Assembly (NCBI RefSeq): GCF_002549795.1
Contig: NZ_CP021435.1
Coordinates: forward strand, 3,100,001 to 3,164,000
Length of the DNA: 64,000 bases
Direction: 5' to 3'
From: Halomonas beimenensis
Lineage (GTDB): Bacteria > Pseudomonadota > Gammaproteobacteria > Pseudomonadales > Halomonadaceae
Shown one piece after another: positions 14,081-31,006 of this stretch. The notes beneath the pieces are model-generated. The model was not told the DNA's origin and did not search any database. It was given only the letters and a program-made list of their open reading frames with translations. The translations under genes were made by a program, and so were the position numbers. Positions within the stretch are counted from its first letter, which is position 1. Every line of letters starts with the position of its first letter.

Positions 14081-14111
14081 TGAGGTGGCCCTGAAAAAGT
14101 AGACACCTTGA

Positions 14112-14969
14112 TCAGGCAGCGGCTTCAAACGCCTTGGGCGATACCCCGCCCAAGGCGCCATGCAGCCGCACCTTATCGTAATACTCTTCGATGTAGTACT
14201 CCGCCTCAGCCTGCAGTTCAGCACGACTCTGCCGTGCCAGGCGACGGAGCCACTCTTCCTTCAGCTGGGCAAAGAAACTCTCGGCACAGGCGTTATCCCA
14301 GCAATTGCCACGACGGGACATGCTCAACGTGATGCCTCGCTCCGTCAGCCACCGCATCACGTTCTCGCTGCGGTACTGCGCCCCCTGATCTGAATGGAAC
14401 AGCATGCCTCCGCTTGAGGGCTGCCGCGCCGCCCAGGCCATCCTCAGCGCCCGCTCCACCAGGTGGCTGTCGTTGAGAGGCCCACCGGCCCAGCCGACGA
14501 TCCGCCGGGAATACAGGTCCATGACGATGGCCAGGTACCACCAGCCTTCGTGACAGCGTACCTGTGTGATGTCCGAGACCCAGACGCGATTGGGCGCCGT
14601 CACATCGAATTCTCGGTTCAGCAGGTTGGGTAAGGCCGGCAGGCCAGGCTTGGGGCGCCGATAACCGGGGCGCAAGGCCCGTGTCGAGCGATAGCCCGCG
14701 CGCTGCAGGAGCCGCTGCACACGATTCTGGCTACAGGCAAAGCCCACGTTCACGGCCGCCTGCCAGAGTTTGCGATAACCTGGTACGCCTGCCTGCCGGT
14801 CAGCTTCGGCCAGCAGGAAGCGCAACAGGCGCTCGTTCTCCGTCACCTGGGGGGACGGTCGGCGACTTAGCCAGCGATAGAAGCCCGCCTTGGACACGCC
14901 GAGTACTCCGCACATCAAAACAACCGTCCAGCGTCGGGAGCGGTAGCGCTTGATGAAGGCGAACTTCAC
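14112..14969 (-). CDS. IS3-family transposase OrfB (DDE integrase domain)
   Basis: A 285-residue catalytic subunit. After an HTH_21-like N-terminus (VPGYRKLWQAAVNVG) comes an rve integrase core. The first Asp is in VWVSDITQV, the second in MLFHSDQGAQY, and the Glu is in CAESFFAQLKEEW. The stand-alone start is GTG 14969, overlapping the OrfA stop (GTGA). More likely the active product is an OrfAB fusion made by -1 frameshifting at 14999-15005, because the OrfB frame is open back to that point. Confidence 0.93.
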   Translation of the reverse strand: MKFAFIKRYRSRRWTVVLMCGVLGVSKAGFYRWLSRRPSPQVTENERLLRFLLAEADRQAGVPGYRKLWQAAVNVGFACSQNRVQRLLQRAGYRSTRALRPGYRRPKPGLPALPNLLNREFDVTAPNRVWVSDITQVRCHEGWWYLAIVMDLYSRRIVGWAGGPLNDSHLVERALRMAWAARQPSSGGMLFHSDQGAQYRSENVMRWLTERGITLSMSRRGNCWDNACAESFFAQLKEEWLRRLARQSRAELQAEAEYYIEEYYDKVRLHGALGGVSPKAFEAAA

Positions 14970-15283
14970 TTCGGGTCTTTGGCGAAGTACTCGTTGGCCT
15001 TTTTTAGGATTTCGACTTCCAGCTCGGCCCGCTCGAGACGCTTCTTGAGTCGCCGGTTCTCACGCTCCAGCTCATGCTGGCTCTTGTGGGGACCCGCGTT
15101 GGGCACCCCCTTGGGCTGGCGGTCATCCGTGGTCACGAGTTCTCGCCTCCATCGACCTAGCAGTTTCGGGTGTATCCCGAACCGCTCCGCTACGCGGGCC
15201 TGGGGTTCGGGGGACTCCAGCGAATGCTGGACCACATGGCGTTTGAACTCCAGGGAGAACTGGCGACGGGTTTTCAAGCGCAT
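14966..15283 (-). CDS. IS3-family transposase OrfA (HTH domain)
   Basis: A 105-residue protein with an N-terminal helix-turn-helix (FSLEFKRHVVQHSLE...ARVAERFGIHPKLLGRWRRE) and a C-terminal leucine-zipper-like coiled coil (ELERENRRLKKRLERAELEVEILKKA, periodic Leu). It binds the IS ends and multimerises with the OrfAB transposase. The ORF ends ...YFAKDPK and overlaps OrfB in the -1 frame. Confidence 0.93.
   Translation of the reverse strand: MRLKTRRQFSLEFKRHVVQHSLESPEPQARVAERFGIHPKLLGRWRRELVTTDDRQPKGVPNAGPHKSQHELERENRRLKKRLERAELEVEILKKANEYFAKDPK
14999..15005 (-). other. A6G slippery heptamer for -1 ribosomal frameshifting
   Basis: On the minus strand the codons CTA AAA AAG of OrfA contain A AAA AAG in the correct phase. 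A -1 slip here reads AAA AAA GGC CAA... with no stop up to and through the OrfB start, giving an OrfAB fusion. This is the standard signal of the IS3 family. Confidence 0.85.
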
Positions 15284-15337
15284 AGCACCTTACCTCCGGG
15301 TTGCAGGTAAGGTGTCTACAAATTCAGGGGCACTCCA

Positions 15338-16544: not shown

Positions 16545-17954
16545 TCAGGCGGTCTGCAGGACGCCCTCGCGGACCAGCTCGTCGGTGACCTTGTTCACCG
16601 CGCGTTCGGTACGGGCGATGATCTCGTCGACCTCGCCGCGGCTGGTGGTCGGCAGCGGCGCGAAGCCGAGGATGTCTCCCTGAGGCATGGCCCGGGCGAT
16701 CAGGTTCTCCTCTAGGGCGGCGGCGGCGATGCGCGGACCGACCTTGAGGCTCGGATCGAAGTGGGCACGGCGAGCCGGGTCGGCGGAGAACTCCAGCGCC
16801 GCCAGCATCCCCACGCCGCGGGCCTGGCCGACGATGGGATGATCGCCGAAGGTCGCCTGCATGCGCTTCTGGAGGTAGGCGCCGGTGTCGGCGGCGTTGG
16901 CGGTGAGCCCCTCGCGCTCGATGATCGCCAGGTTGGCCAGGCCGGCGGCTCAGCCCAGGGCATGACCGGAATAGGTCCAGCCGTGACCGATGGGGCCGTA
17001 CTCGCCGGTGCCCTGCTCCAGCACCTGCCAGACCCGGTCGCCGACGATGACGCCGGACAGCGGCTGATAGGCGCTGGTCAGGCCCTTGGCCACGGTGATC
17101 AGGTCCGGCTTGATGCCGTAGTGATGGCTGCCGAAGTCGCTGCCGATCCGCCCGAAGCCGCAGACCACCTCGTCGGCGATCAGCAGGACGTCGTACTTGG
17201 CGAGCACCGCCTGGATGGCCTCCCAGTAGCCCTCCGGCGGCGGCACGATGCCGCCGGTGCCGAGCACCGGCTCGCCGATGAAGGCCGCCACCGTGTCGGG
17301 GCCCTCGGCCAGGATCATCGCCTCGAGCTGCTCCGCGCAGTGCCGGGAGAACTCGCGCTCGGTCATGCCCTCCTGCTCCGCGGCGCGGTGATAGTAGTAC
17401 GGCGCCTCGGTGTGGCGGATGGTGTCGATGGGCAGGTCGAAGTGGTCGTGGAAGGCCTTGAGCCCGGTCAGCGAGCCCGAGGCGATCCCGGAACCGTGAT
17501 AGCCGCGCATCCGCGCGATCACCTTCTTCTTCTGCGGGCGACCCAGGACATTGTTGTAGTAGCGCACGATCTTGAGCTGGGTCTCGTTGGCGTCGCTGCC
17601 GGACATGCCGTAGTAGACCTTGGACATGCCGGGCCCGGCCAGCTCGAGGATCTTCTCGGACAGGGCGATCTGCGGCTCGTTGGAGTGGCCCACGTAGGTG
17701 TGGTAGTAGGCCATCTCGAGGGCCTGCTGGTAGATGGCCTCGGCCACCTCGGTGCGGCCGTAGCCGATGTTGACGCAGTACAGCCCGGCGAAGCCGTCGA
17801 TGAACTCGCGGCCGTCCTTGTCGATGATATGGATGCCCTTGCCGCCGGTGATGACCCGGCCCGGCGCGTCGCCGTGGGCGAAGTCGCGCAGGTGGGTGGA
17901 GGCGTGGAAGGTCACCTTGCGGTCGCGGTCGATCAGGTCCTTGTGGGTGGTCAT
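16545..17954 (-). pseudogene. doeD: doeD, class III aminotransferase with an in-frame TGA
   Basis: The frame encodes a 469-codon class III PLP aminotransferase, expected to move an amino group from L-2,4-diaminobutyrate to give aspartate semialdehyde in ectoine breakdown. The cofactor Lys is at codon 290 (TVAKGLTSAYQP). Codon 335 is TGA (16950-16952) inside GHALG*AAGLANLA, where related enzymes usually have Cys or Ala. The same frame continues cleanly for 134 more codons (AAGLANLAIIEREGL to GVLQTA). One base change (for example TGC to TGA) explains it. The truncated product would lack the C-terminal small domain. A sequencing error is the main alternative. Confidence 0.85.
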
Positions 17955-18430: not shown

Positions 18431-19912
18431 CTAGCTCCCCGAAACCGAGCCCAGGGCCCCCAGGCAGTAGTACTTCGTCTCCAGATACTCGTCGATGCCG
18501 GTCACGCCGCCCTCGCGGCCGAGGCCCGAGTGCTTGACCCCGCCGAAGGGCACCGGGGGACCGGTCATCTTCACGGAATTGACCGCGACCATGCCATATT
18601 CCAGGGCGCGCAGGAGTTTCCAGATGCGACGGATGTCATGGGTATAGACGTAGGCCGCCAGGCCGTACTCGGTGTCGTTGGCCATCTCGATGACCTGGTC
18701 ATCGTCGCTGTAGGCGGTGATGCCGGCCACCGGGGCGAAGCTCTCCTCGTGCCAGATCTTCATGTCGTGGGTCACGTTGGTGAGCAGGGTCGGCATGAAG
18801 AAGTTCTCGCCCGGCGCCTGGCGCTGGTCGCCGGCCACCAGGGTGGCGCCCTTGGAGACGGCGTCATCGACGATGGCCGCGGCCTTCTCCACCGCCTGGC
18901 GATGGATCAACGGCCCCAGGTCGACCTCGCTCTCCAGGCCGTTGCCCACGGTCAAGGCCGCCATGCGGTTGGCGAAGTGCTCGACGAAGGCGTCATGGAG
19001 CGACTCGTGGACCAGGATGCGGTCCGCGGCGAGGCAGTCCTGGCCGGCGGTCTGGAACTTGGCCGCCACGGCGGCGAACGCCGCTTCCTTGGGATCCATG
19101 TCCGGCCCGACGATGAAGGGCGCATTGCCGCCCAGCTCCAGCGAGACGCGCTTGACCGAGTTGGCACACTGTTCCAGCAACAGCCGGCCCACCCGGGTGG
19201 AGCCGGTGAAGGACAGCGCCTTGATGCGGTCCTCGTCGCAGAGGATCCGCGACACCTCGGCGGCTTCCCCCAGCACCACGTTGAAGACCCCGGCGGGGAT
19301 GCCGGCACGCTCGGCGAGCTCGGCCAGCGCCAGCGCCGAGAAGGGGGTCTCGTGGGCCGGCTTGACGATCACCGGGCAGCCGGCGGCCATGGCCGCGGCG
19401 GCCTTGCGAGTGATCATCGCCAGCGGGAAGTTCCAGGGCGTGATCAGGGCGGCGATGCCCACCGGCTCCTTGAGGGTGCCCAGCGCCGCGTTGGGGATGT
19501 GGCTGGGGATGGTGTCACCGAAGGTCCGCTTGCCCTCCTCGGCGAACCAGCGCACGAAGCTGGCGCCGTACTCCACCTCGCCGCGGGCGTCCGGCAGCGG
19601 CTTGCCCTGCTCCCGGGTCATGAGGATCGCCAGGTCCTCGCGGTGAGCCTGGAGCAGGTCGTACCAGGCCAGCAGGCGCTCGCAACGCTCGTCGGCGCGC
19701 AGCGCCCGCCAGTGCACGAAGGCCGCCTCGGCGGCGTCCACGGCCGCGGTGATCTGGGCCGGCTCGAGCAGCGGAATATGCCCCAGCACCTCGCCGGTGG
19801 CGGGATCGACGACGGCCTCCTCGCGGCCCTGGTCGGCATGGGTCCACTTGCCGTCGACATAGGCGTACTGCCGGAACAGACGCGGATCGCTGAGCATGTT
19901 GGACAGCGTCAT
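18431..19912 (-). CDS. doeC: DoeC, NAD(P)-dependent (aspartate/succinate) semialdehyde dehydrogenase
   Basis: A 493-residue aldehyde dehydrogenase. The catalytic Cys is at 293 (TAGQDCLAADR), the general base Glu is in VSLELGGNAP, the cofactor loop is FTGSTRVG, and the N-terminal signature is ITPWNFPLAMI. In Halomonas elongata the same gene beside doeX oxidises aspartate semialdehyde to aspartate, the last step of ectoine degradation. By fold alone it would be called succinate-semialdehyde dehydrogenase. The start at 19912 follows GGGGAGG. Its leader folds as described at 19922-19996. Confidence 0.87.
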   Translation of the reverse strand: MTLSNMLSDPRLFRQYAYVDGKWTHADQGREEAVVDPATGEVLGHIPLLEPAQITAAVDAAEAAFVHWRALRADERCERLLAWYDLLQAHREDLAILMTREQGKPLPDARGEVEYGASFVRWFAEEGKRTFGDTIPSHIPNAALGTLKEPVGIAALITPWNFPLAMITRKAAAAMAAGCPVIVKPAHETPFSALALAELAERAGIPAGVFNVVLGEAAEVSRILCDEDRIKALSFTGSTRVGRLLLEQCANSVKRVSLELGGNAPFIVGPDMDPKEAAFAAVAAKFQTAGQDCLAADRILVHESLHDAFVEHFANRMAALTVGNGLESEVDLGPLIHRQAVEKAAAIVDDAVSKGATLVAGDQRQAPGENFFMPTLLTNVTHDMKIWHEESFAPVAGITAYSDDDQVIEMANDTEYGLAAYVYTHDIRRIWKLLRALEYGMVAVNSVKMTGPPVPFGGVKHSGLGREGGVTGIDEYLETKYYCLGALGSVSGS

Positions 19913-19921
19913 GGTCACCTC

Positions 19922-19996
19922 CCCTGACACGCCGGCGCGGGAAGGCGCCGGCGGTGAAATGGCATCCGCGGCGGGCGCCGCGTGATGGTGTCAGGG
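19922..19996 (-). promoter_or_regulatory. Three-way-junction-shaped leader in front of doeC
   Basis: Read on the minus strand, the RNA can form an outer stem P1 (CCCTGACAC, 19996-19988, with GTGTCAGGG, 19930-19922). Inside it are P3 (CGCGGC, 19982-19977, with GCCGCG, 19972-19967) and P2 (CGCCGGCGC, 19953-19945, with GCGCCGGCG, 19938-19930). All arms are perfectly complementary. The 3' arm of P1 runs into the doeC ribosome-binding site (GGAGG at 19922-19918). This is the shape of a translation-controlling RNA, but no known riboswitch family is recognised, and high GC content makes chance stems easier. Confidence 0.5.
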
Positions 19997-20031
19997 TAAG
20001 GCAGGCGGGCGGACGGGAGTTTCCGAAGTCG

Positions 20032-20067
20032 GGCGCCGGGGCACGGAAGATTTTTCGTTCCGGCGCC
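20032..20067. terminator. Hairpin after the decarboxylase gene
   Basis: GGCGCCGG (20032-20039) and CCGGCGCC (20060-20067) are perfectly complementary, with a 20-base loop. It lies 28 bases past the decarboxylase stop. It could end or attenuate the four-gene transcript before doeC; no T-run follows on the minus strand. Confidence 0.4.
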
Positions 20068-20095
20068 GTGGGGTTGCGATTTTTTTGTCGCCTCC

Positions 20096-22873
20096 TCAGT
20101 AGACGGGCGGGTCGGCCAGGGCCCCCTCGGTGAACACCAGCAGGCCCAGCTCCGGGCGATAGCCATGGATCTCCTTGACGTCCAGGGCCTGGAGGAAGTG
20201 CAGGATCGCCTCGCTGACCACCTGCCCCGGCACCAGCACCGGGAAGCCCGGCGGATAGGGAATCACGAAGCTGGCCGCCACCACGTCGCGTCCCTCCCGC
20301 ATCTGGGCCTGGAGCTCCCCGTTGTCGAAGCTCAGGTACTCGGTGTTCTCCTCGTCGTAGCTCAGGAAGTAGGCGCTGCGGATGTCGCCTTCCGCCGTCT
20401 CGGCACCGCGTCGGAAGGCGTCGTGGAAGCGGCTGAAGTCCGGCAGCGGCGGCAGCTCCCGGGTCAGGGAGTGGACCCGGCGCTCGATGATCTTGCGCTC
20501 GGGGCGGCTGCTCTCCTCCCAGCGGTAATCGAACTCCTTGGCGATCTTCATCAGCACGTCGAGCAGGTAGGCGATGGCGCCCCGGGAGGTGCCGATATTG
20601 GTCATGAACAGCACGGTGTTGCGTGAGGTCTTGTTGATCTGGATGCCGTACTTGTTCATCAGGTATTCGTTCTTGAAGGCATCGCCGTCCACCCCGGTGT
20701 TCCCGATGGCGATGGTCACCCGGGTGGGGTCGACCACGAACTCGTCCCGGGCCCAGGCCTCCTCCATCTGGTTCCAGCCGGTTACCGGGTCGTAGTAGGA
20801 CTCGACCCCGGACTCCCGGTAGGCGGCGGGTACCATGTCGCTGTTCTTGAGCACCCGGAAGTACTTCTGCAGCAGCGGATGGCTGTAGAGCTGCTCGCGC
20901 AGCGACATCGCCGCCTCGACCTGGGCATGCACCAGCTCGAAGCCTTCCATCTCGGCCTGCATGCGGCCCACGTCCAGCGACGCCAGGATCTGGTAGTTGG
21001 GCGAGGTGGAGGTGTGGGTCATGTAGGCTTCGTGGAAGGGCGCCTCCGCGCGCTGCCGGAAGTCCTGGTCGTAGACGTGGATCATCGAGCCCTGGCGCAG
21101 GGAGGTCAGGGTCTTGTGGGTGGAGTGGGTGGCATAGACCCGGATCCGCACCCGGTCCGGATCCGGCATCAGCGGCCGCTCGAGCCAGGTGGCGTCGTCG
21201 TCCGGGTCCAGGGCGTCGAACTCGGCCTTCCAGGCCTCGTACTCGCGGCGGTACTCCTCGCTGCGGTAGCGGTCGCGCAGGGTGCGCGCCGCGTGCATGG
21301 CCGTGCGCGGACGATAGGTGGGGTTGAAGGAGGCGAAGGCGAACCAGGCCTCGTCCCACAGGAACACCAGGTCGGGCTTGATCGCCAGGCACTCCTCCAT
21401 GACCCGGCGCACGTTGTAGACCACGCCGTCGAAGGTGCAGTTGGTGAGCAGCAGCATCTTCACCTTGTCGAGGGTGCCGGCCCGCTTGTGGTCGAGCAGG
21501 GTCTTCTTGATCTCGTGGAGCGGCACCGCCCCGTACATGGAATAGTCGTTGAGCGGATAGGAATCCAGGTAACTGACATGGGCCCCGGCCAGCACCATGC
21601 CGTAGTGGTGCGACTTGTGACAGTCGCGGTCGACGAGCACGATGTCGCGGGGCTTGATCAGCGCCTGGACCACGATCTTGTTGGCCGTGGAGGTGCCGTT
21701 GGTGACGAAGAAGCTCTGCCGGGCGCCGAAGGCCCGGGCGGCGTACTCCTGGGCCTTCTTGATCGGCCCGTAGGGTTGCAGCAGGGAATCCAGCCCCCCC
21801 GATGTCGCCGAGGTTTCGGCCAGGAAGATGTTGATGCCGTAGAAGTCGATCATGTGGCCCGCCCAGTGGGAACGGGTGATCGACTTGCCCCGGGAGATGG
21901 GCATGGCATGGAAGACCCCGGTGGGCTTCTTGCTGTACTCGCGCAGGGCATCGAAGAAGGGCGTGCGGAAGCGGTCGTCGATGGCGCGCAGGATGGTGTG
22001 GTGCTGCTCGATGTAGTCCGTCTCGCGATAGAAGATCCGCTTGAAGTGGCGGAGGTCGCGGCTGGCGGTGCTCTCCACGTCGGCGCTGGTGACCAGGAAC
22101 TGGTCCACCTCGGGACGCAGCTCGTGGATCATCGAGCTCAGCAGGATGCTGCGGTCGGCCTCCGACTGCTCCTCCAGGGACTGCTCGGAGAGGCCCTCCA
22201 GGTAGCGGCGCAGGGCGCTGAGGTTGTACTTGGACTTGAAGGGGAAGTCGAAGCGGATCAGGCAGGCCTGGATGTTGGGATTGACCAGCATCGCGATCAG
22301 GGCATCCTCGAAGCTCCTGACCGTGACCACGTCGTAGACGAACCTGTCCTCGGGACGACGCAGGTTGTGGAAGGCCTCCCGGACCACCTCCTCTTCCTGG
22401 GCAGAGCAGTTGTCGACGATCAGCAGCTCGAAGTAGGGCTGGGCCGCGCTGTTGGAGGCCGGATGGCCACGCCGCAGCTGGTTGAGGGCATCCAGGGTCT
22501 CCAGGCTCTCGTCATCGGCATCGGTCTCGCTCAGGTCGACGTGCCGGCGCCGGTAGGATTCGCTGATCAACGCCCGCACCAGGCGCCTGACCACCTTGTC
22601 GAGGGCATCGTACTCCCCGCGCTGGAACAGCGACCAGATATGGCGGAAGTCCTCCTTGGACGGGAAGGCGTGATAGTCCTCGATGATCTCGAGCCGGGTG
22701 AGCTTGACGTCGATGGCCTTGACCAGTTGCCGCATCCGGCTCTCGTCCTTGAGCCGCACCAGCTGGCCGAGATCCCGCGTCAGGGCGTTCCAGGTGTCGG
22801 CGCGCAGCTGGGAGATCTTGTGGTAGAACCCCAGCGCCGTATAGGGCGTTTCGGTATGACTCGTCTCTTGCAT
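20096..22873 (-). CDS. Long Orn/Lys/Arg-type PLP decarboxylase (925 aa)
   Basis: A fold-type I PLP decarboxylase related to the bacterial inducible lysine, ornithine and arginine decarboxylases, with the cofactor Lys at 587 (YATHSTHKTLTSLRQGS). The catalytic core covers roughly residues 330-920. The N-terminal region is much longer than usual: about 130 helical, charged residues (QLVKAIDVKLTRLEIIEDYHAFP) precede a receiver-like wing domain (ELLIVDNCSAQEEEVV). Typical family members are 710-755 residues. The expected reaction is amino acid to amine plus CO2. Given the position in an ectoine locus, diaminobutyrate is one candidate substrate, but nothing in the sequence settles it. It is last of four genes with 34-49-base gaps. 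Confidence 0.85.
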   Translation of the reverse strand: MQETSHTETPYTALGFYHKISQLRADTWNALTRDLGQLVRLKDESRMRQLVKAIDVKLTRLEIIEDYHAFPSKEDFRHIWSLFQRGEYDALDKVVRRLVRALISESYRRRHVDLSETDADDESLETLDALNQLRRGHPASNSAAQPYFELLIVDNCSAQEEEVVREAFHNLRRPEDRFVYDVVTVRSFEDALIAMLVNPNIQACLIRFDFPFKSKYNLSALRRYLEGLSEQSLEEQSEADRSILLSSMIHELRPEVDQFLVTSADVESTASRDLRHFKRIFYRETDYIEQHHTILRAIDDRFRTPFFDALREYSKKPTGVFHAMPISRGKSITRSHWAGHMIDFYGINIFLAETSATSGGLDSLLQPYGPIKKAQEYAARAFGARQSFFVTNGTSTANKIVVQALIKPRDIVLVDRDCHKSHHYGMVLAGAHVSYLDSYPLNDYSMYGAVPLHEIKKTLLDHKRAGTLDKVKMLLLTNCTFDGVVYNVRRVMEECLAIKPDLVFLWDEAWFAFASFNPTYRPRTAMHAARTLRDRYRSEEYRREYEAWKAEFDALDPDDDATWLERPLMPDPDRVRIRVYATHSTHKTLTSLRQGSMIHVYDQDFRQRAEAPFHEAYMTHTSTSPNYQILASLDVGRMQAEMEGFELVHAQVEAAMSLREQLYSHPLLQKYFRVLKNSDMVPAAYRESGVESYYDPVTGWNQMEEAWARDEFVVDPTRVTIAIGNTGVDGDAFKNEYLMNKYGIQINKTSRNTVLFMTNIGTSRGAIAYLLDVLMKIAKEFDYRWEESSRPERKIIERRVHSLTRELPPLPDFSRFHDAFRRGAETAEGDIRSAYFLSYDEENTEYLSFDNGELQAQMREGRDVVAASFVIPYPPGFPVLVPGQVVSEAILHFLQALDVKEIHGYRPELGLLVFTEGALADPPVY

Positions 22874-22907
22874 GGCGACACCCTTCTTGGTGATGGTTCA
22901 GCGTCCC

Positions 22908-23906
22908 TCACCCCGTATAGAGTCCCCGCGCACCGTAGCGCACGGTGATACGCTCCTCGGGGAAGTCCTCGAAGGAGAGGTCGAGGTCGAGCCCCGGCCA
23001 GTGGAACATCGCCCGTCCCTGGTCGGGCCGGTAGACCGCGGTGTAGACCGTGCCCAGGCCGCGGCCGTAGTCGTGGCGGAACAGCGGCGGGGACGAGAAG
23101 GCGGCGACGAAGCGCGCCTCGCTGGTCGCCTCGTCGTCCACCAGGATCGACAGCTGGCGCTCGCGGATCAGCGTCTCCGACGCCAGGGCATGGGCGTACC
23201 ATTCGATCTTCTTCTGGTGGTTGGTGGCCACCGGCACCCGGCGGATGCTGGCCGGGCGGTCGGGGGCGATCATCGCCGTGACGTAGCGGCCGGCGCGGTC
23301 GGCCACGGTGATGTTGTAGGCCATGTGGGTCGGCACCCGGGCCAGTACCCGAGCCGCCTGGGGAACGTCGTCGCAGGTCTCCAGGACATAGCGCAGGATG
23401 ATCGGCGCCCCGAAGCCGTCGCCGACCGCCTTGCGGCCGCCGAAGGCCAGCGAGACGGCCAGGCCGTTCTCGTTCATGCCGTCGAGCACGCCCCACAGGC
23501 AGTCGGACATGGCGATGACCCGGCGCCCGTTCCAGCGGCTGTAGAGGATGGTCCCCTCGCACAGCTCGGGGGGATAGTCGTAGTTTCGCGCCAGCACCGT
23601 CGCCCCCGGCCGGGTCAACACCGCCTGGGAACACCCCGTGATGTAGGCCGGCGGTCGGTAGAGGCTGAGCAGGCGAGCGCTGAGATCTCCGCCGCCGGCC
23701 AGATCGCACAGGGTCCGGTAGGTGTCCACCAGCTCGGGCATGTGGCGACGCAGCGCGTTGAAGCAGGCCAGGTAGCCCGGACGCTCGCGCTCGCCCTCGC
23801 TCAGGTACCACTGCTCGTAGGCCGGCCAGTGGAAGTCGAACAGCGACTTCCACCTGGCGCCCGGCGCCTCCTCGCGCACGGTCCGGAATTCCAGCGTCTT
23901 GGTCAT
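22908..23906 (-). CDS. C45-family Ntn hydrolase (acyltransferase / amidohydrolase)
   Basis: A 332-residue member of the isopenicillin-N acyltransferase / carcinine hydrolase family. The autocleavage site is visible as Gly91-Cys92 in YITGCSQAVL; Cys92 would become the N-terminal nucleophile. The following LARNYDYPPE and the FGGRKAVGDGFG substrate loop match the family. Members hydrolyse or transfer N-acyl groups on small amides, including beta-alanyl-amines. It lies between the ATP-grasp gene and the decarboxylase, which suggests it cleaves or forms amides of an amine. The start at 23906 was chosen for its nearby GGCGAG; an in-frame upstream start lacks a site. Confidence 0.8.
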   Translation of the reverse strand: MTKTLEFRTVREEAPGARWKSLFDFHWPAYEQWYLSEGERERPGYLACFNALRRHMPELVDTYRTLCDLAGGGDLSARLLSLYRPPAYITGCSQAVLTRPGATVLARNYDYPPELCEGTILYSRWNGRRVIAMSDCLWGVLDGMNENGLAVSLAFGGRKAVGDGFGAPIILRYVLETCDDVPQAARVLARVPTHMAYNITVADRAGRYVTAMIAPDRPASIRRVPVATNHQKKIEWYAHALASETLIRERQLSILVDDEATSEARFVAAFSSPPLFRHDYGRGLGTVYTAVYRPDQGRAMFHWPGLDLDLSFEDFPEERITVRYGARGLYTG

Positions 23907-23955
23907 CTCGCCGCCCGACGCCCGCCCCCTCGGGGCGGGGCGCCGCGCCTCCCCC

Positions 23956-25566
23956 TCACAGGATCTTGAAGTTGGCGCCGCCGACGGCATGACTCACGGC
24001 GACCTGCTCCACCACCGGATCCTGGAGGGGCTGGCCGGCGAACTGCCCCCGGATGCCGTCGATCCACGCCTTGGCCCGCTCGGTGAGCTGGAAGTCGTCG
24101 TCCATCAGCCGACCTCGGGTGATCAGGATGCCGAGATCGGCGCCCTCGTAGCGGAAGTCGCCCTCGCCGCTGATGCGCAGGAAGAAGGCCTCGCTCTCGT
24201 TCTCGGCGGCATGGGGGTGGGAGTCGTAATGGTCGTAGGCGACGCTGCCGTCCTCCGCCATGCGCCAGACCCCGGAGGCCGGGGCGGCGGTGAGCAGGTC
24301 GACGCTCTCCTCGGTGTGCTTGATGACCAGCTGGCTCCAGCTGTCGACGCTGTCGGGATGGGACCAGCGCTCGTTGATGTCGTCGATGTCGAGGTCGAAG
24401 TCGAGGTCGGAGAACTCCAGCAGGTGAAAGAGGAACAGCGGGATGTCGGAATGGGCGAAGGCCGCCACGTTGGTCAGCGAGCTGGCCCCGGTGACACGCG
24501 GGTTGAGCTCGCCGAGATAGACCTCGTGGCTGTCCATGTCGATCAGGAAGTCGAGCTCGAAGTAGCCGCGATAGCCCTCCTCGCGCAGCGCCTCGCCGAA
24601 CCGGAAGGTGTACTCCCGCGCCTTGTCGCGCACCTCCTGGCTGAAGGCGCCGGCGAACATCTCGTTGCCGCACCAGCCGCCCTTGTAGGGCGTCAGCGAC
24701 TTGAAGCCCACCAGCTCGGTCATCAGCGGCCCGACCACGGTGCCGCAGCGGGTGGCGCAGGCCTCGATGGCCGAGCCGCGGCAGTTGATGCGCTTCATGA
24801 TCTTGACCTCGGGCTCCGCCTCGATCTCCTCGGCGTGCTTGTAGTAGTCGTCCTCGCCGGCGATGAAGAAGGTGGTATGCCCCGAGTCGCCGTAGGCGGT
24901 CTGCACCACCAGATCGTCCCCCAGCTCCCGGCTCACCTCCCGCAGTTCCGCGTAGCTGCCCACCTTGGCCAGGACGTTGGGCACGCTGGGCACCCCGGCC
25001 TTGTTGCCGATGCGCACCGTCTCGATCTTGTTGTCCATGCGCGAGCGCAGTGCCGCCGGCGGGAAGGCGATCTTCAGCCCGAGCTGCTCGCAGATTTCCT
25101 CGGTGTGCTCGTCGAACATCAGGAAGGCGGCGGTGCCGGCGTTGTCCCCCTGGGCCCGGGACTGGATGAAGTCGATGACTTCCTTGTGCTCGAGGAGGTA
25201 GTTGTTGATGTCCTCGATGCTCTCGAAGTCCCGGGGAAACTTCTCGCGGGGCACGAAGACGTTGCGCTGGCGCCGGTCGAAGCAGTCGATGTAGTTGATG
25301 TGCCGGAAGCTGCCGACCCAGTCACCGATCCCCAGCAGGTTGAAGTTGGTGGCCGAGATGAAGTAGATCGGCTCCTTGTTGTTGAGGAAGTGGCGGCGAA
25401 CGTCGGCGATGCTGGTGAGCTTGTTGTTCATCGTGGTCGCTCCCTGAGGGTCGGCGGGGGTCCCGTCCTTCGCGGCGGCGGGGACGGCACGGTCGGACAC
25501 GGCGGAGCCGGCGGCCTTGGGCGAGGCGAACAGGCGACGCAGGGCATCGAGGATTCGAGCGAACAT
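23956..25566 (-). CDS. ATP-grasp superfamily ligase
   Basis: About 536 residues. The ATP-grasp core runs from the substrate domain (PIYFISATNFNLLGIGDWVGSF) through the nucleotide fold (VVQTAYGDSGHTTFFI, a glycine-rich loop) to the metal site (YFELDFLIDMDSHEVYLGELNPRVTGAS). Such enzymes join a carboxylate to an amine through an acyl-phosphate. It is often labelled biotin carboxylase, but no biotin domain is present. The start is uncertain: ATG 25566 adds a basic amphipathic segment (MFARILDALRRLFASP) and a low-complexity linker; ATG 25431 (MNNKLTSIAD) begins at the conserved part. It lies 46 bases after the amidase gene. Confidence 0.8.
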   Translation of the reverse strand: MFARILDALRRLFASPKAAGSAVSDRAVPAAAKDGTPADPQGATTMNNKLTSIADVRRHFLNNKEPIYFISATNFNLLGIGDWVGSFRHINYIDCFDRRQRNVFVPREKFPRDFESIEDINNYLLEHKEVIDFIQSRAQGDNAGTAAFLMFDEHTEEICEQLGLKIAFPPAALRSRMDNKIETVRIGNKAGVPSVPNVLAKVGSYAELREVSRELGDDLVVQTAYGDSGHTTFFIAGEDDYYKHAEEIEAEPEVKIMKRINCRGSAIEACATRCGTVVGPLMTELVGFKSLTPYKGGWCGNEMFAGAFSQEVRDKAREYTFRFGEALREEGYRGYFELDFLIDMDSHEVYLGELNPRVTGASSLTNVAAFAHSDIPLFLFHLLEFSDLDFDLDIDDINERWSHPDSVDSWSQLVIKHTEESVDLLTAAPASGVWRMAEDGSVAYDHYDSHPHAAENESEAFFLRISGEGDFRYEGADLGILITRGRLMDDDFQLTERAKAWIDGIRGQFAGQPLQDPVVEQVAVSHAVGGANFKIL

Positions 25567-25612
25567 GGGAGGTCCTCGTTCCATGGTTTGGTGGCCGCCT
25601 GTCCGTGGCGAT

Positions 25613-26482
25613 TCAGTACTCCTCGATATTGGCACGCTGCGGCTTGGCGAGCGGTCCCAGGGTGTCCAGGAAGGGCGAGGAGCCGTCTTCGTTGCGATAC
25701 AGCGAGAAGTCGACGCGCCGGTCGCGGAAGCTCTTGAGCGGCTGCCCGAGCCCCCGCAGCCCCGTTTCGCGCTCGCGGCGCACGCGGCTCAGGTCGACCT
25801 CGATGGGCATGATCTCCTCGCCGGTGCCGGCCTGGTGGATGACGTCCCCCGACGGGCCCACCACGATGGAGCGCCCGTTGCCGATGGCGCCGGCCCCGTT
25901 GATGTCGAAGAAGTAGCACTGGTTGACCGCCGCGTTGGTGCGCGCGATGGCCAGCTCGATATCCCGGTCGATGGTATCGGTCATGGTCGGGTGGAGGATC
26001 ACCTCGGCCCCCATGGCCGCCAGGGTGCGGGTGGTCTCGGGGAACCACATGTCATAGCAGATCGAGACGCCGAAGCGCCCCACGTGAGGCACGTCGAAGG
26101 TGACGAACTCGCCGCCGCTCTCCACTCCGGCCTCGTAGGGGCGGAAGGGGAACATCTTGCGGTAGCGGGCCACGATCTCGCCCCGGGGGTTGATGACCGA
26201 GAGGGTGTTGAAGACCTGCCCTTCGCGCTGCTCGAACATCGAGCCGGGAATCAGCCAGATGCGATGCTGCTCGGCCAGCTGGCAGAACATCGCCTCGGCA
26301 TGGTTGGGCAGCGGCTGGGCATGGTGAGGGGAGGCCCCCATGGGCATCAGTTCGCTGAACAGCACCATCTGCACCTGGGGAAAACGGCTCATCAGCGCAT
26401 CGATCCGATGGCGCATGGCCTCGGTGTTGTCGCCATGATGCAGGGCATGCATCTGAACACCGGCAATCGTGAAATAGGACAT
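25613..26482 (-). CDS. Carbon-nitrogen hydrolase (nitrilase superfamily amidase)
   Basis: A 289-residue amidase with the complete catalytic triad: Glu44 (LFSELMP), Lys109 (RYRKMFPF) and Cys142 (SICYDMWFPE). The ICYDMWFPE form is that of amidase or N-carbamoyl-hydrolase branches rather than true nitrilases. It would hydrolyse a small amide or carbamoyl-amine in the cytoplasm. It is the first gene of a four-gene block inserted between doeX and doeC and has its own candidate promoter at 26611-26639. The substrate is unknown. Confidence 0.85.
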   Translation of the reverse strand: MSYFTIAGVQMHALHHGDNTEAMRHRIDALMSRFPQVQMVLFSELMPMGASPHHAQPLPNHAEAMFCQLAEQHRIWLIPGSMFEQREGQVFNTLSVINPRGEIVARYRKMFPFRPYEAGVESGGEFVTFDVPHVGRFGVSICYDMWFPETTRTLAAMGAEVILHPTMTDTIDRDIELAIARTNAAVNQCYFFDINGAGAIGNGRSIVVGPSGDVIHQAGTGEEIMPIEVDLSRVRRERETGLRGLGQPLKSFRDRRVDFSLYRNEDGSSPFLDTLGPLAKPQRANIEEY

Positions 26483-26610
26483 GGTGGTCTCTCTGCGTCA
26501 GGCGATCTCGAATCACTTCGGGCACAGTCCAACGGCCGGCGCCAATCGATTCAACGCCGGAGGGATCGCCCGGCAGGGGTGGTAGAGCTGTATACTCACC
26601 TCCCCTTCAG

Positions 26611-26639
26611 CTTATGCCATGTCCGTAGGGAGGATTCAA
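26611..26639 (-). promoter_or_regulatory. Candidate sigma-70 promoter of the amidase block
   Basis: On the minus strand TTGAAT (26639-26634), a 17-base spacer and CATAAG (26616-26611) fit a sigma-70 promoter. The -35 is inside GATTCAACGC (26633-26642), which recurs at 26548-26557 as a direct repeat, a possible regulator site. It lies about 130 bases before the amidase start. Confidence 0.4.
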
Positions 26640-26668
26640 CGCTGGGTGCACGTCGCGAGCGATCCGGC

Positions 26669-27148
26669 TCATTGCGGCATGAAATCGCCCGGAGAGAAGC
26701 CGGCGTCGGGACGCTTGACGGTCTTGGTGACGATATAGGTGAAATAGCGCTCGATGCCGGCATCGGACATCAGCCAGGCATCGATCAGGCGCTGGTAGGC
26801 ATCGATGGAGGTCGCCTCGACCTTGACCAGGTAATCGACGCCGCCGCCCACGGCCACGCACTCGGTGACCTCCGGGGTGTCGCGGACCAGGGCCTCGAAG
26901 CGCGCGAAGCTCTCGGCATTGTGCGCCTTGAGCTCGATCTGCACCCACACCGGGGTGCGGGGCCGGAGCACGGCCGGGTTGATCCGCGCCCCGTAGCCCT
27001 CGATGATGCCGGCCTTCTCCAGGCGCCGGACCCGCTCCCAGCAGGGGCTGACCGAGAGGTTGATGGCCTCGGCCAGCTTCGACTTGGTGATGCGTCCCTC
27101 ACGGGAGAGGATCTCGAGGATCTTCAGGTCGTAGCGATCGAGCTTCAT
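26669..27148 (-). CDS. doeX: DoeX, Lrp/AsnC-family transcriptional regulator
   Basis: A 159-residue regulator. The N-terminal winged helix is LDRYDLKILEILSREGRITKSKLAEAINLSVSPCWERVRRLEKAG, followed by the AsnC effector domain (VWVQIELKAHN to YFTYIVTKTVK). It is the expected regulator of the doe genes in Halomonas. The conserved start is MKLDRYDL at 27148. An in-frame ATG at 27169 overlaps the doeB stop (TGATG) and is a real alternative by translational coupling. Confidence 0.9.
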   Translation of the reverse strand: MKLDRYDLKILEILSREGRITKSKLAEAINLSVSPCWERVRRLEKAGIIEGYGARINPAVLRPRTPVWVQIELKAHNAESFARFEALVRDTPEVTECVAVGGGVDYLVKVEATSIDAYQRLIDAWLMSDAGIERYFTYIVTKTVKRPDAGFSPGDFMPQ

Positions 27149-27168
27149 GGGTGTCCGGGATCCTGGCA

Positions 27169-28182
27169 TCAACCGAGGGCATCGACCACTTCGGCGATCA
27201 CCGCGATGGTGTCGCCCATGTGGACGTTGGCCGGGAAGCGGCGCGCCGCGAGCACCCCGCCGCGGCCGGCGCGGTACTCGACGGGCGCGGCCCCGCTGCG
27301 GGTCATGTCGTAGACTCGGGCGATCACCTGGCCCTGCTCCACGGCCTCCCCCAGGGCCACCGTCAGCTCGAGCAGGCCGCTGTGCTCGCTCTGCACGTAG
27401 CAGCTGGCATCCGGCATGTCGAGATAGACCTGGGGCTCGGCGGGCGCCTCCGGCTCGCCCTCGAGCAGGCCGAAATGGATCAGGAAGTTGCGGATGCCCC
27501 GCTCGGTGATCGCCAGGCTCTCGGGCGTGGAGGTGCCGCCGCCGCCGAGCTCGGTGGCCACGAAGATCTTGCCCTGGCGCTCCACGGCGGTGTCGAACAG
27601 CGCCTCGGCATCGAGCTCGAACATCATCATCGCATAGGGCGCGCCGAAGGCCTTGGCGGCCGCCAGGGCCTGGCGCTGCTGGTCCGCGTCATCGAGCACA
27701 TGGGAGGCCGCGAAGGGCACGATGTCCAGGGTCCGGCCGCCGGAGTGCAGGTCCAGCACCACGTCGCACATGGGCACCAGCACCCGGGTGAAGTAGTCGG
27801 CGATCTTCTCGGTGACGCTGCCGTCCGGGTCGCCCGGGAAGCTGCGGTTGAGGTTGCCGCCGTCCATGGGCGAGGTGCGCCGGCCGGCCTGGGCCGCCGG
27901 GGCGTTCATCGTCGGCACGATGATCACCCGGCCACGGATGTCCTCGGCCGTCAGGCGGCTCGACAACTTCTGCAGGGCGGTGATGCCCTCGTACTCGTCG
28001 CCGTGGTTGCCCCCGGTCAGCAGGGCCGTGGGACCCTCGCCGCGCTTGATCACGGTGACGGGGATCATCACCGCGCCCCAGGCCGACTCGTCGGTGGAGA
28101 TCGGCAGCTTGAGGAAGCCGTGCTGGACGCCCTCGGCGTCGAAGTCCACGGTCGCGGAGATGGGGCTGGGTCGCTTGCTCAT
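27169..28182 (-). CDS. doeB: DoeB, N-alpha-acetyl-L-2,4-diaminobutyrate deacetylase
   Basis: A 337-residue zinc hydrolase of the succinylglutamate desuccinylase / aspartoacylase family. The metal ligands are His60 and Glu63 (GGNHGDEYEG) and His146 (LDLHSGGR). It removes acetate from N-alpha-acetyldiaminobutyrate, the product of DoeA, giving diaminobutyrate. It is 12 bases downstream of doeA, and its stop overlaps a possible doeX start. The family assignment from sequence alone would be broader; gene order makes DoeB specific. Confidence 0.92.
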   Translation of the reverse strand: MSKRPSPISATVDFDAEGVQHGFLKLPISTDESAWGAVMIPVTVIKRGEGPTALLTGGNHGDEYEGITALQKLSSRLTAEDIRGRVIIVPTMNAPAAQAGRRTSPMDGGNLNRSFPGDPDGSVTEKIADYFTRVLVPMCDVVLDLHSGGRTLDIVPFAASHVLDDADQQRQALAAAKAFGAPYAMMMFELDAEALFDTAVERQGKIFVATELGGGGTSTPESLAITERGIRNFLIHFGLLEGEPEAPAEPQVYLDMPDASCYVQSEHSGLLELTVALGEAVEQGQVIARVYDMTRSGAAPVEYRAGRGGVLAARRFPANVHMGDTIAVIAEVVDALG

Positions 28183-28194
28183 GGGGCGTGCTCC

Positions 28195-29394
28195 TTACTT
28201 GACGAACAGCTGGCGCGGGAAGTTGGCCAGCGTCTCGCAGCCGGTCTCGGTGATCAGGATGCTTTCGGTGATCTCCAGGCCCCAGTCCTCCTCCCAGAGG
28301 CCGGGCATGAAGTGGAAGGTCATGCCCGGCTCGAGGATGGTCTCGTCGGAGGGACGCAGGCTCATGGTGCGCTCGCCCCAGTCCGGCGGATAGCTGATGC
28401 CGATGGGGTAGCCACAGCGCGCCCCGCCGCGGTCGAAGCCGTACTTGTCCATGGCCGCGCCCAGGGCCATGGCGATGTCCGCGGTACGGTTGCCGGGCCG
28501 GGCCACCTCCATGCCGTGCTCGATGCCCTCGAGCAGCGCCGACTCGGCGCGCAGGAACTCCTCGGGAGGACGGCCCAGGAAGACGGTACGCGACATGGGC
28601 GCATGGTAGCGCTTGAAGACGCCGGCGATCTCGAAGAAGGTCCCCTCACCTTCCCGGAAGGGGCTGTCGTCCCAGGTGAGGTGCGGCGCCGCCGCGTCCT
28701 TGCCGGTGGGCAGCATGGGCACGATGGCCGGGTAGTCGCCGCCGAAGATCTTGCCGTGTTCGTCCTTCCAGCCCTCGATGCCGACCCGGTAGATCTCGGA
28801 GACCAGCTTGCTCTTGGGCAGCCCGGGCTCGACGATCTCGAGGATGCGCGAATGCATGCCCTCCACGATCTTGCCCGCGATGCGCATGTACTCGACCTCC
28901 TGGGCCGACTTGATGGCTCGGCACCAGTTGACCAGGGCATTGGCGTCCATGAAGCGGGCATGGGGCAGTTCGCGCAGCAGCGACTGATAGGCCTTGGCGG
29001 AGAAGTAGTAGTTGTCCATCTCCATGCCCACCACGCCCTCGTGCCACCCGCGATCGGGCAGGATGGTCTGGGCCAGGTAGTCCATGGGGTGCATGTCCGG
29101 GTTCTGGACATAGTAATCCGGGTAGTAGGTGATGTTCTCCGGATCCATCCAGCAGGTGCGCAGGGCGCCGTTGGCATCCATGCGCCGGCCGTACCACACG
29201 GGCTCCCCTTCGAGCCCGAGCAGCACGCACTGGTGCACGTAGAAGGACCAGCCGTCGTACCCGGTCAGCCAGGCCATGTTGGAGGGGTCGCTGATGATCA
29301 GCACGTCGATGCCCCGGCTCGCCATCTCGGCGCGGACCTTCCAGAGCCGGCCGGCATATTCTTCGCGAGTGAAAGGCAGGGAAACCTGAATCAT
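28195..29394 (-). CDS. doeA: DoeA, ectoine hydrolase (M24 fold)
   Basis: A 399-residue protein with the creatinase/prolidase 'pita-bread' fold, the same length as the Halomonas elongata enzyme. It hydrolyses the ectoine ring to N-acetyldiaminobutyrate. Glu255 (FFEIAG) sits where metal-dependent M24 enzymes have a metal-binding Asp, in line with reports that the ectoine hydrolases do not use the usual metals. It is the first gene of the minus-strand locus and faces enuR. Confidence 0.93.
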   Translation of the reverse strand: MIQVSLPFTREEYAGRLWKVRAEMASRGIDVLIISDPSNMAWLTGYDGWSFYVHQCVLLGLEGEPVWYGRRMDANGALRTCWMDPENITYYPDYYVQNPDMHPMDYLAQTILPDRGWHEGVVGMEMDNYYFSAKAYQSLLRELPHARFMDANALVNWCRAIKSAQEVEYMRIAGKIVEGMHSRILEIVEPGLPKSKLVSEIYRVGIEGWKDEHGKIFGGDYPAIVPMLPTGKDAAAPHLTWDDSPFREGEGTFFEIAGVFKRYHAPMSRTVFLGRPPEEFLRAESALLEGIEHGMEVARPGNRTADIAMALGAAMDKYGFDRGGARCGYPIGISYPPDWGERTMSLRPSDETILEPGMTFHFMPGLWEEDWGLEITESILITETGCETLANFPRQLFVK

Positions 29395-29532: not shown

Positions 29533-29597
29533 TTCCATCCATGTCTCAAGCCGATACTAGCACTGCCGCTTGGCAGGGGGTCAAAGGCTTTATTGCA

Positions 29598-29607
29598 TCA
29601 TGACAAT
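29598..29607 (+). promoter_or_regulatory. Third copy of the TCATGACAAT motif at the enuR start codon
   Basis: TCATGACAAT is identical to the operator arm at 29523-29532 and contains the enuR ATG (29600-29602). This suggests autoregulation, although part of the match is forced by the start codon. Confidence 0.45.
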
Positions 29608-31006
29608 CGATCTGACGCCCTTCCTGTCACCCACCGGCCCCAAGTACCTGGCCATCGCCCGGGCGCTGGCCGAGGCCATCCGCCAGGGCGAGCTCGTCCC
29701 CGGCGCCCGGCTGCCGCCTCATCGACAGCTGGCCGAGGCCCTGGGAGTGAGCGTGCAGACCGTCTCGCGAGCCTATGCCCAGGCCGAGAAGATGGGCCTG
29801 GTGCAGGCCAGGGTCGGCAGCGGCACCTGGATCAACGCCCTGGATGATGCCCGCGAGGCCGCCTACCTGCGAGGCCAGGAATCGCGCCGGGAGCCTGCCC
29901 TGATCGACCTGTCCATCGCCCATCCCGTCTGCCCGCCGGGCCATCACCTGCGGTTTCGCGAGACGCTGGCGGAGCTCGCCGAGCAGGGCAGCCCCGAGGT
30001 GGTGACCGCCAACCGGCCCATCGCCGGCCTGCCCCACCAGCGGGAGCGTGCCAGCGACTGGCTGGCCGGTCGGCTGGGCGTTCCCGGAGGGCCCGACGAC
30101 AGGATACTGTGCAATGGGGCCGCGCACGGCCTGATGCTGGCGATCTCCACCCTGGTGCAGCATGGCGACCTGGTGCTGACCGAGGCCCTCACCGATCATG
30201 GGCTGATCGCCCTGTCGCGCACCCTGGGCTTCCAGTTGCGGGGCGTGGCGATCGACGAGCGGGGCGTGATCCCCGAGGCCCTCGACCTGGCCTGCCGCCG
30301 TCACCGGCCCCGGGCCGTCTGCCTCACCCCTACCCAGCTCAACCCCACCGGTGCCACCATGGATTCGCCCCGTCGCGATGCCGTGGCCGAGGTACTGGAC
30401 CGCCATGGGGTCTGGCTGATCGAGGACGACGTCCATGCCCTGCTGGAACCGCCGGGACTGACCCCGCTCGCCGCCCGCCTGCCACACCTGTGCTTCCATG
30501 TCACCAGCCTGACCAAGGCCGCGGTACCGGGCCTGCGAGCCGGCTATCTGAGCGTGCCCCGGGGCCAGCTGCACCACGCCCTGCCACGGATGCGCGCCAC
30601 CACCTGGATGGCCACCCCGCTGATCTTCGAGATCGCCGACGCCTGGATCGCCGACGGCACCCTGGAGCGACTGGCCAAGGAGCAGCGCGAGCTGCTGGCG
30701 GCCCGACAGCGACTCGCCGCCCGGCTACTGGCCGGCCACGAGCGCGCCGCCCGGCCCACCAGCCTGCATGTCTGGCTCTCGCTGCCGGCCGCCTGGCGAG
30801 CCGAGGAACTCCAGCAGCAGGCCGAACAGGAAGGTGTCGCCCTCACCACGGCGATACCCTTCATGGTGGAGCAGACCCCGCCGCCCCGTCGCATCAGGCT
30901 GAGTCTCGGGGCGGAACAGGACCCGGCCCGCCTGGAGGAAGGGCTGGGCCGGATCGCCGCCTTGCTGGACGAGGCGCCTCCCCCCATGATGCAGATCGTC
31001 TATTGA
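29600..31006 (+). CDS. enuR: EnuR, MocR/GabR-family regulator of ectoine catabolism
   Basis: A 468-residue regulator. The N-terminal GntR-type winged helix (YLAIARALAEAIRQGELVPGARLPPHRQLAEALGVSVQTVSRAYAQAE) is joined to an aminotransferase-like domain with the PLP Lys at 306 (VTSLTKAAVPGLRAGY). EnuR proteins hold PLP and sense ectoine breakdown products such as N-acetyldiaminobutyrate and diaminobutyrate, and repress the uptake and degradation genes. It is divergent from doeA across the shared repeat motif. A dehydrogenase gene follows 14 bases later. Confidence 0.9.
   Translation: MTIDLTPFLSPTGPKYLAIARALAEAIRQGELVPGARLPPHRQLAEALGVSVQTVSRAYAQAEKMGLVQARVGSGTWINALDDAREAAYLRGQESRREPALIDLSIAHPVCPPGHHLRFRETLAELAEQGSPEVVTANRPIAGLPHQRERASDWLAGRLGVPGGPDDRILCNGAAHGLMLAISTLVQHGDLVLTEALTDHGLIALSRTLGFQLRGVAIDERGVIPEALDLACRRHRPRAVCLTPTQLNPTGATMDSPRRDAVAEVLDRHGVWLIEDDVHALLEPPGLTPLAARLPHLCFHVTSLTKAAVPGLRAGYLSVPRGQLHHALPRMRATTWMATPLIFEIADAWIADGTLERLAKEQRELLAARQRLAARLLAGHERAARPTSLHVWLSLPAAWRAEELQQQAEQEGVALTTAIPFMVEQTPPPRRIRLSLGAEQDPARLEEGLGRIAALLDEAPPPMMQIVY

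What the first reader, a model, noticed from the sequence alone, without database searches (positions are those of the whole stretch)
20096..26482. Four-gene amine/amide module embedded in the ectoine locus
Between doeX and doeC, which are neighbours in Halomonas elongata, lie an amidase, an ATP-grasp ligase, a C45 N-terminal-nucleophile hydrolase and a long amino acid decarboxylase, with 34-49-base gaps and one direction. Functionally the set can make an amine (decarboxylase), couple it to an acid (ATP-grasp) and cut amides (C45, amidase). That is the logic of a conjugation route for di- or polyamines, analogous to the gamma-glutamyl-putrescine pathway but with different enzyme families. Diaminobutyrate from DoeB could feed it, giving 1,3-diaminopropane. 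I do not know this combination as a described pathway.
Basis: partly seen in the sequence, partly recalled or inferred. Interest (0 to 1): 0.75.

Follow-up and report, generated by a model that had tools for sequence, protein, structure and literature searches.

The report
Widespread uncharacterised GABA-linked gene module
Four neighbouring bacterial genes form a module that recurs in several bacterial phyla, usually away from the ectoine genes it sits among here; the indirect evidence points to glutamate and GABA chemistry rather than the proposed polyamine route, and its function still has to be tested.

Summary
They are a real module. In 33 of 33 Halomonadaceae doe loci fetched the order is the same. 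Of 84 non-duplicate loci outside that setting, 45 have the other three genes within 6 kb of the ATP-grasp gene (many others are cut contigs). They come from Proteobacteria, Planctomycetota, Bacteroidota, Myxococcota and Gemmatimonadetes.

The diamine/diaminobutyrate reading is weakened, not excluded. The decarboxylase belongs to the unassigned Rv2531c family. It has Asn (13 of 13) where five ordinary Orn/Lys/Arg-type decarboxylases have Glu. Recurrent neighbours include GABA-transaminase-like and succinate-semialdehyde-dehydrogenase-like genes, TAXI and glutamate-type transporters, and glutamate dehydrogenase. A paralogous branch lies beside aspT in 5 of 5 loci viewed. Agmatinase in six loci points the other way, to arginine.

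Proposal: the decarboxylase makes an omega-amino acid (GABA, or beta-alanine) from an acidic amino acid; the ligase and two hydrolases make and cleave an amide of it. Confidence 0.4. The amide partner is unknown. Four combination searches of an open-access paper library found no description.

The parts
   Evidence: PF00795 108.3 bits v 23.2; residue positions; best solved relative Nit2 2w1v E 1e-20; triad recalled
23956..25566 (-). ATP-grasp protein annotated 'biotin carboxylase' (PRK06524 family), 536 aa
   Evidence: NF005096 754.9 v 684; model pLDDT 82.5, ATP-grasp fold; ELNPRVTG in place of the carboxylase E.NpRiQvEH
22908..23906 (-). C45 family N-terminal-nucleophile hydrolase/acyltransferase, 332 aa, Cys92
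20096..22873 (-). long PLP-dependent decarboxylase of the Rv2531c type, 925 aa; Lys587 in STHK, Asn747 in place of canonical Glu
   Evidence: PF01276 262.7 v 27; PDB 9n0o/9n0n 825 bits; alignment
26669..27172 (-). doeX-like Lrp/AsnC regulator (flank; start uncertain)
   Evidence: position as in H. elongata
27169..28182 (-). doeB (flank)
   Evidence: TIGR02994 494.2 v 402.7
28195..29394 (-). doeA (flank)
   Evidence: TIGR02993 658.7 v 613
18431..19918 (-). doeC (flank), succinate-semialdehyde-dehydrogenase family
   Evidence: TIGR01780 596 v cut-off 646.35, i.e. below it; synteny in 33 of 33 relatives
16545..17954 (-). doeD (flank), class III aminotransferase with an in-frame TGA at 16950-16952

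Best explanation
A stand-alone metabolic module that in one lineage came to sit inside the ectoine-degradation locus. Shown: four intact genes, conserved together across phyla; a PLP decarboxylase of a family with no assigned substrate; an ATP-grasp protein without the carboxylase motif; two amide-hydrolase folds. Inferred: (1) the decarboxylase removes the alpha-carboxyl of an acidic amino acid, most likely glutamate giving GABA, less likely aspartate giving beta-alanine; (2) the ATP-grasp protein spends ATP to join that omega-amino acid to an unknown partner as an amide; (3) the C45 protein and the CN hydrolase (replaced by an amidase-signature protein in some loci) cleave amide bonds and release the omega-amino acid; (4) GABA transaminase and succinate-semialdehyde dehydrogenase, next to the module in many genomes and elsewhere in this one, carry it to succinate. 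In Halomonadaceae the ectoine route would supply aspartate and glutamate. What the amide is for (protection, storage, export) is not known.
For: Cluster conserved: 45 of 84 non-duplicate non-doe loci with all four within 6 kb. In Alphaproteobacteria 8 genomes carry both GRASP (9 of 337) and DEC (9 of 327). Glu-to-Asn at the EKT motif in 13 of 13 DEC/paralogues against Glu in 5 of 5 canonical enzymes; Rv2531c also has Asn. GabT-like gene in 17 of 21 non-proteobacterial loci (17 of 19 with upstream sequence); over the GABA-transaminase cut-off in L185 and L163, SSADH cut-off passed in L184. TAXI transporter at 11 non-duplicate loci, GltI/SDF-like transporter at 4, glutamate dehydrogenase at 5 of 6 rhizobial loci viewed. 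Paralogous branch beside aspT in 5 of 5 viewed, aspD in 2. Own genome has a GabT over cut-off with an SSADH-type ORF beside it; its only PF01276 gene is DEC and its only PF00282 gene is PanP. Carboxylase QVEH replaced by TGAS.
Against: No enzyme was assayed. The role of the replaced Glu is recalled; two paper searches did not confirm it (one search also gave nothing relevant). Most GabT-like and SSADH-like neighbours tested fall below their cut-offs. Agmatinase-like genes lie at 6 loci, three of them with DEC, and AruI at 3 without DEC, which suggests arginine. ectB lies near a relative in S. meliloti. GltI and SDF matches are below their cut-offs. TAXI substrates are recalled. If glutamate is simply decarboxylated, the need for a ligase and two hydrolases is unexplained.
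Confidence: 0.4

Rival explanations
1. One reading: the decarboxylase makes a diamine (1,3-diaminopropane from diaminobutyrate here), the ligase conjugates it, the hydrolases release it after oxidation, as in the gamma-glutamyl-putrescine route.
For: Position inside the doe locus in 33 of 33 Halomonadaceae doe loci; ectB near a relative in S. meliloti ml66; a paralogue beside doe genes in Phyllobacterium; decarboxylase superfamily acts on basic amino acids.
Against: Glu-to-Asn change; GABA/glutamate neighbours elsewhere; most loci have no doe genes; no amine oxidase recurs among the neighbour families (one search list of the 45 commonest).
Confidence: 0.15
2. An arginine route: decarboxylase makes agmatine, agmatinase gives putrescine, the ligase/hydrolase set carries putrescine to GABA.
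For: Agmatinase-like genes within 6 kb at 6 loci (L083, L093, L035, L124, L129, L161), passing TIGR01230 in the two tested (208.2 and 216 v 174.3); AruI (5-guanidino-2-oxopentanoate decarboxylase, 733 and 770 v 500) at the DEC-less loci L083, L124, L129 (two tested); GabT neighbours.
Against: 78 of 84 non-duplicate non-doe loci have no agmatinase within 6 kb; Glu-to-Asn change; no conserved oxidase for putrescine.
Confidence: 0.2
3. Aspartate version: DoeC's product aspartate is decarboxylated to beta-alanine, which is conjugated.
For: doe end product is aspartate (PMC3187862); paralogues with aspT and aspD.
Against: This genome already has PanP, 886.8 v 606.1; transaminase and dehydrogenase neighbours resemble GABA enzymes.
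Confidence: 0.15

Closest known systems
Rv2531c of Mycobacterium tuberculosis (PDB 9n0n, 9n0o, 9n0p), substrate unassigned
   Same: 825 bits over residues 139-920, same long N-terminus, same Asn at the EKT position
   Different: I did not look at its gene neighbourhood; PMC12910592 (passages seen) says its activity is not clarified
Gamma-glutamyl-putrescine (Puu) pathway of E. coli
   Same: proposed conjugate-then-hydrolyse logic; GABA as product (recalled)
   Different: ligase here is ATP-grasp, not glutamine-synthetase type; hydrolases are C45 and CN hydrolase
doeABXCD ectoine degradation, H. elongata
   Same: flanking genes and order
   Different: the four genes are absent between doeX and doeC there (PMC3187862, passages)
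Ebony/Tan beta-alanyl-amine cycle of Drosophila (recalled)
   Same: omega-amino acid joined to an amine, then released by a C45-type hydrolase (recalled)
   Different: Ebony is an NRPS-like ligase (recalled); substrates here unknown
PRK06524 'biotin carboxylase' (NF005096)
   Same: passes its cut-off
   Different: the name is misleading: carboxylase QVEH motif absent

Membership tests
biotin carboxylase | ATP-grasp fold | tested here: met
biotin carboxylase | QVEH after E-x-N-x-R (bicarbonate/biotin site, role recalled) | tested here: not met
   pyruvate carboxylase EvNpRiQvEHtv aligned with GRASP ELNPRVTGASS
biotin carboxylase | biotin carrier or carboxyltransferase partner | not tested
   none noticed among recurrent neighbours, but not searched for
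OKR decarboxylases (PF01276) | domain above cut-off and PLP lysine | tested here: met
   262.7 v 27; STHK conserved in 18 aligned except VHK or IHK variants
OKR decarboxylases acting on basic amino acids | Glu of the EKT motif | tested here: not met
   Asn in 13 of 13 DEC/paralogues; Glu in 5 of 5 canonical
OKR decarboxylases acting on basic amino acids | activity on Orn, Lys or Arg | not testable with these tools
   needs an assay
C45 acyltransferase/hydrolase | family model, nucleophile Cys, isopenicillin N acyltransferase fold | tested here: met
C45 acyltransferase/hydrolase | autoproteolytic activation | not testable with these tools
   needs protein
N-carbamoylputrescine amidase AguB | TIGR03381 above cut-off | tested here: not met
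   76.4 v 410.25
Puu pathway | glutamine-synthetase-type ligase in the module | tested here: not met
   ligase candidate is ATP-grasp; no glutamine-synthetase-type protein in the four-gene module

The most novel reading that the evidence does not exclude
A bacterial counterpart of the Ebony/Tan cycle: an unrecognised class of acidic-amino-acid decarboxylases (the Rv2531c family) makes GABA, an ATP-grasp ligase masks it as a small amide, and C45 and CN hydrolases release it, giving many phyla a reversible GABA (or beta-alanine) conjugation cycle; on rhizobial symbiosis plasmids it lies beside nif genes together with an oligopeptide importer and further amidases.
Probability: 0.25. Interest if true: 0.8.

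Novelty: new variant of a known kind. Interest (0 to 1): 0.6.

Why it matters
If right, it would give a testable substrate class for a decarboxylase family that includes the unassigned Rv2531c, correct a misleading 'biotin carboxylase' name, and describe a conserved GABA-linked pathway present in distant bacteria. It would also explain an extra block in the ectoine-degradation locus of industrially used halophiles. The ligase partner and the amide remain an open, directly testable question.

Tried and rejected
Considered and set aside: (a) that the four genes are a chance row; rejected by conservation. (b) That the module is part of the ectoine pathway proper; most loci elsewhere lack doe genes, and the GRASP tree places 34 doe-linked sequences (window included) with five stand-alone ones (Vreelandella massiliensis, Marinobacter, an Oleiphilaceae MAG) in one clade of 39, support 0.978, the only clade with order CN hydrolase-GRASP-C45-DEC. 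(c) That GRASP is a biotin carboxylase; motif absent. (d) The PG[E/Q] position as a marker: at first I took it for the substrate Glu; it is not diagnostic, since an ordinary enzyme (L154) also has Gln, so I use the EKT position only. (e) An oxidative-decarboxylation (amide-forming) version of the decarboxylase; nothing tested supports or excludes it. (f) Fold search could not separate carboxylase from ligase; other folds not listed are not excluded. (g) Sigma-70-like promoters: 0 found in 19850-26750, 0.5 expected. (h) Paper searches: 10 used. Combination searches gave no paper; one search gave one unrelated paper. Searches on the Glu residue gave nothing relevant. The Rv2531c structure paper PMC12329521 is not held.

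Limits of the counts: loci are best matches to the window's own ATP-grasp protein plus sampled genomes, so they are not an unbiased sample. Of the loci fetched I left L032 (same organism as L083), L041, L042, L158, L167, L168 and later ones out of the 120-locus count. Three pairs are duplicates (L034/L081, L117/L197, L118/L162); L124 and L129 are sister plasmid loci. The first tally put L124 and L129 with the doe loci because of an Lrp gene; one search corrects this. The ORF caller was home-made and missed or misplaced some genes. GabT, ALDH and transporter tallies rest on tblastn over 60 or 80 bits, not on function. I made no matched random-locus control for neighbour enrichment; the own genome has 11 matches to the GabT model in 4.05 Mb, which is only a rough guide to chance.
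Full report
Observation. The window lies in a one-contig genome of 4,053,030 bases; its closest relatives for this locus are Halomonas species. On the minus strand the order is doeA, doeB, doeX, CN hydrolase, ATP-grasp (GRASP), C45, decarboxylase (DEC), doeC, doeD, eutB, an insertion element, eutC. The four genes have gaps of 46, 49 and 34 bases and are set off by 186 and about 177-183 bases. In H. elongata doeX and doeC are neighbours and are not on one transcript (PMC3187862, passages seen), so the module sits at a transcript boundary.

The module is real and not tied to ectoine. With sampled genomes and plasmid records I counted 120 loci. In 33 of 33 Halomonadaceae doe loci the order doeX, CN hydrolase, GRASP, C45, DEC, doeC holds. 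Of the other 87 loci, 84 after removal of three duplicates, C45 lies within 6 kb of GRASP in 79, DEC in 70, CN hydrolase in 57 and all three in 45. Many misses are contigs that end near the gene, but not all: L083, L105, L107, L109, L112, L113, L117 and L120 have 10 kb on both sides and lack one or more. Loci with all four come from Gamma-, Alpha- and Betaproteobacteria, Planctomycetota, Bacteroidota, a Myxococcales MAG and a Gemmatimonadetes MAG (titles). The module is sparse. GRASP hits at full strength occurred in 10 of 369 Gammaproteobacteria (8 matches in 7 genomes over the family cut-off), 9 of 337 Alphaproteobacteria, 12 of 246 of the planctomycete phylum, 3 of 198 and 2 of 140; each of the last four counts includes the centre genome. 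In Alphaproteobacteria DEC occurred in 9 of 327, and eight genomes carry both; the exceptions are G580 (GRASP and C45 only) and G567 (a paralogue beside aspT).

How it came to the doe locus. In a FastTree tree of 119 GRASP sequences, 34 doe-linked ones and five stand-alone ones (Vreelandella massiliensis, Marinobacter, an Oleiphilaceae MAG) form a clade of 39 with support 0.978; all members have the order CN hydrolase-GRASP-C45-DEC, while the commonest order elsewhere is CN hydrolase-DEC-GRASP-C45 (38 of 85). A single move into, or an assembly with, the doe locus is the simplest reading (inference).

The decarboxylase. It matches Orn/Lys/Arg decarboxylases (PF01276) but its close solved relative is Rv2531c of M. 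tuberculosis (825 bits), whose activity has not been clarified according to PMC12910592 (passages seen). In an alignment of 13 DEC and paralogue sequences with five ordinary enzymes from DEC-less genomes, the motif that reads E-K-T/S/C in all five ordinary enzymes reads N-K-T in all 13; Rv2531c also has N. From memory this Glu contacts the distal amine of the substrate (E532 in Lactobacillus ornithine decarboxylase); three paper searches did not confirm it. If so, a diamino acid is a less likely substrate.

Neighbours elsewhere. (i) A GabT-like aminotransferase lies within 6 kb in 26 of 84 non-duplicate loci, and in 17 of 21 non-proteobacterial ones (two of the four misses, L098 and L104, start inside the cluster). 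In these the usual order is dehydrogenase, GabT, CN hydrolase, DEC, GRASP, C45. L185 and L163 pass the GABA-transaminase model (572.7 and 570 against 506.65), though in L163 the gene is on the opposite strand; L184's dehydrogenase just passes the succinate-semialdehyde model (647.9 against 646.35). The others tested do not pass, nor does L117 (488.1). (ii) A TAXI-type TRAP transporter lies near the module at 11 non-duplicate loci, a GltI-like binding protein or SDF symporter at four, a glutamate dehydrogenase at five of six rhizobial loci viewed, and an FMN-glutamate-synthase-like gene at three. The TAXI binding proteins pass their subfamily model; the GltI and SDF proteins are below their cut-offs. 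That TAXI systems take up glutamate or 2-oxoglutarate is recalled. (iii) A paralogous branch (45-47% identical to DEC by tblastn) was viewed at five loci, four plasmids chosen from the list and one genome; aspT is near in all five and aspD in two. I did not view the other plasmids with such genes. (iv) Against this: agmatinase-like genes at six loci (three with DEC nearby), and AruI at three DEC-less loci (L083, L124, L129), point to arginine. Arginine by the AruI route also ends in GABA (recalled), so GABA is the common node of most contexts.

Genomes without DEC. Of the 17 genomes or records searched with the DEC alignment, full-strength DEC was absent from Thiofilum, four Aquitalea, and the genomes of L095, L099 and L120, although they carry GRASP; it was elsewhere in the genome for L077 and L107 and on the XES5 plasmid. 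Seven of those eight carry ordinary Orn/Lys/Arg-type decarboxylases (141-219 bits); L120's has none.

This genome. The GABA-transaminase model gives 11 matches, one over its cut-off (551), with an aldehyde-dehydrogenase ORF of succinate-semialdehyde type (by eye) next to it. PF01276 finds only DEC. PF00282 finds one gene, which is PanP, a PLP aspartate decarboxylase (886.8 against 606.1). So no glutamate decarboxylase of the usual family was found.

Interpretation. Only the anatomy and the correlations are shown; every reaction is inferred. The weakest point is why a ligase and two hydrolases are needed. Overall confidence 0.4; arginine 0.2, diamine 0.15 and aspartate-specific 0.15 remain open.

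Novelty. Four combination searches of an open-access library found no description; subscription papers are mostly missing from it. The enzyme families are known, the combination seems undescribed.

Noticed in passing
window 16950-16952 (minus strand): doeD has one in-frame TGA at codon 335 of an otherwise open frame of 469 codons; may be a real loss or a sequence error.
   Followed up: partly
window 14085-15333: Insertion element with two transposase-like ORFs and 25-base, 84% complementary ends between eutB and eutC; runs of a 7-base repeat (GCAAGCT) flank it on both sides.
   Followed up: partly
window 29570-31006: MocR-type regulator EhuR (596.4 v 480) divergent from doeA.
   Followed up: no
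L131, also L130 and L132: On rhizobial symbiosis plasmids DEC-GRASP-C45 (next to nifHDKEN in L131) is followed by an oligopeptide-type ABC transporter, an amidase, an RpiR regulator and a beta-lactamase-family hydrolase.
   Followed up: partly
L201, L202, L204, L205, L214: A DEC paralogue lies beside aspT, twice with aspD, in what looks like an acid-resistance setting.
   Followed up: partly
L123: The decarboxylase of this Rhizobium plasmid is annotated in two pieces and a second glutamate-dehydrogenase-like match lies upstream; some rhizobial copies look degraded.
   Followed up: no
L035 and L037 (both genome G354): One genome carries two module copies, one with two C45 genes in tandem and one without a nearby DEC on a short contig.
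   Followed up: no
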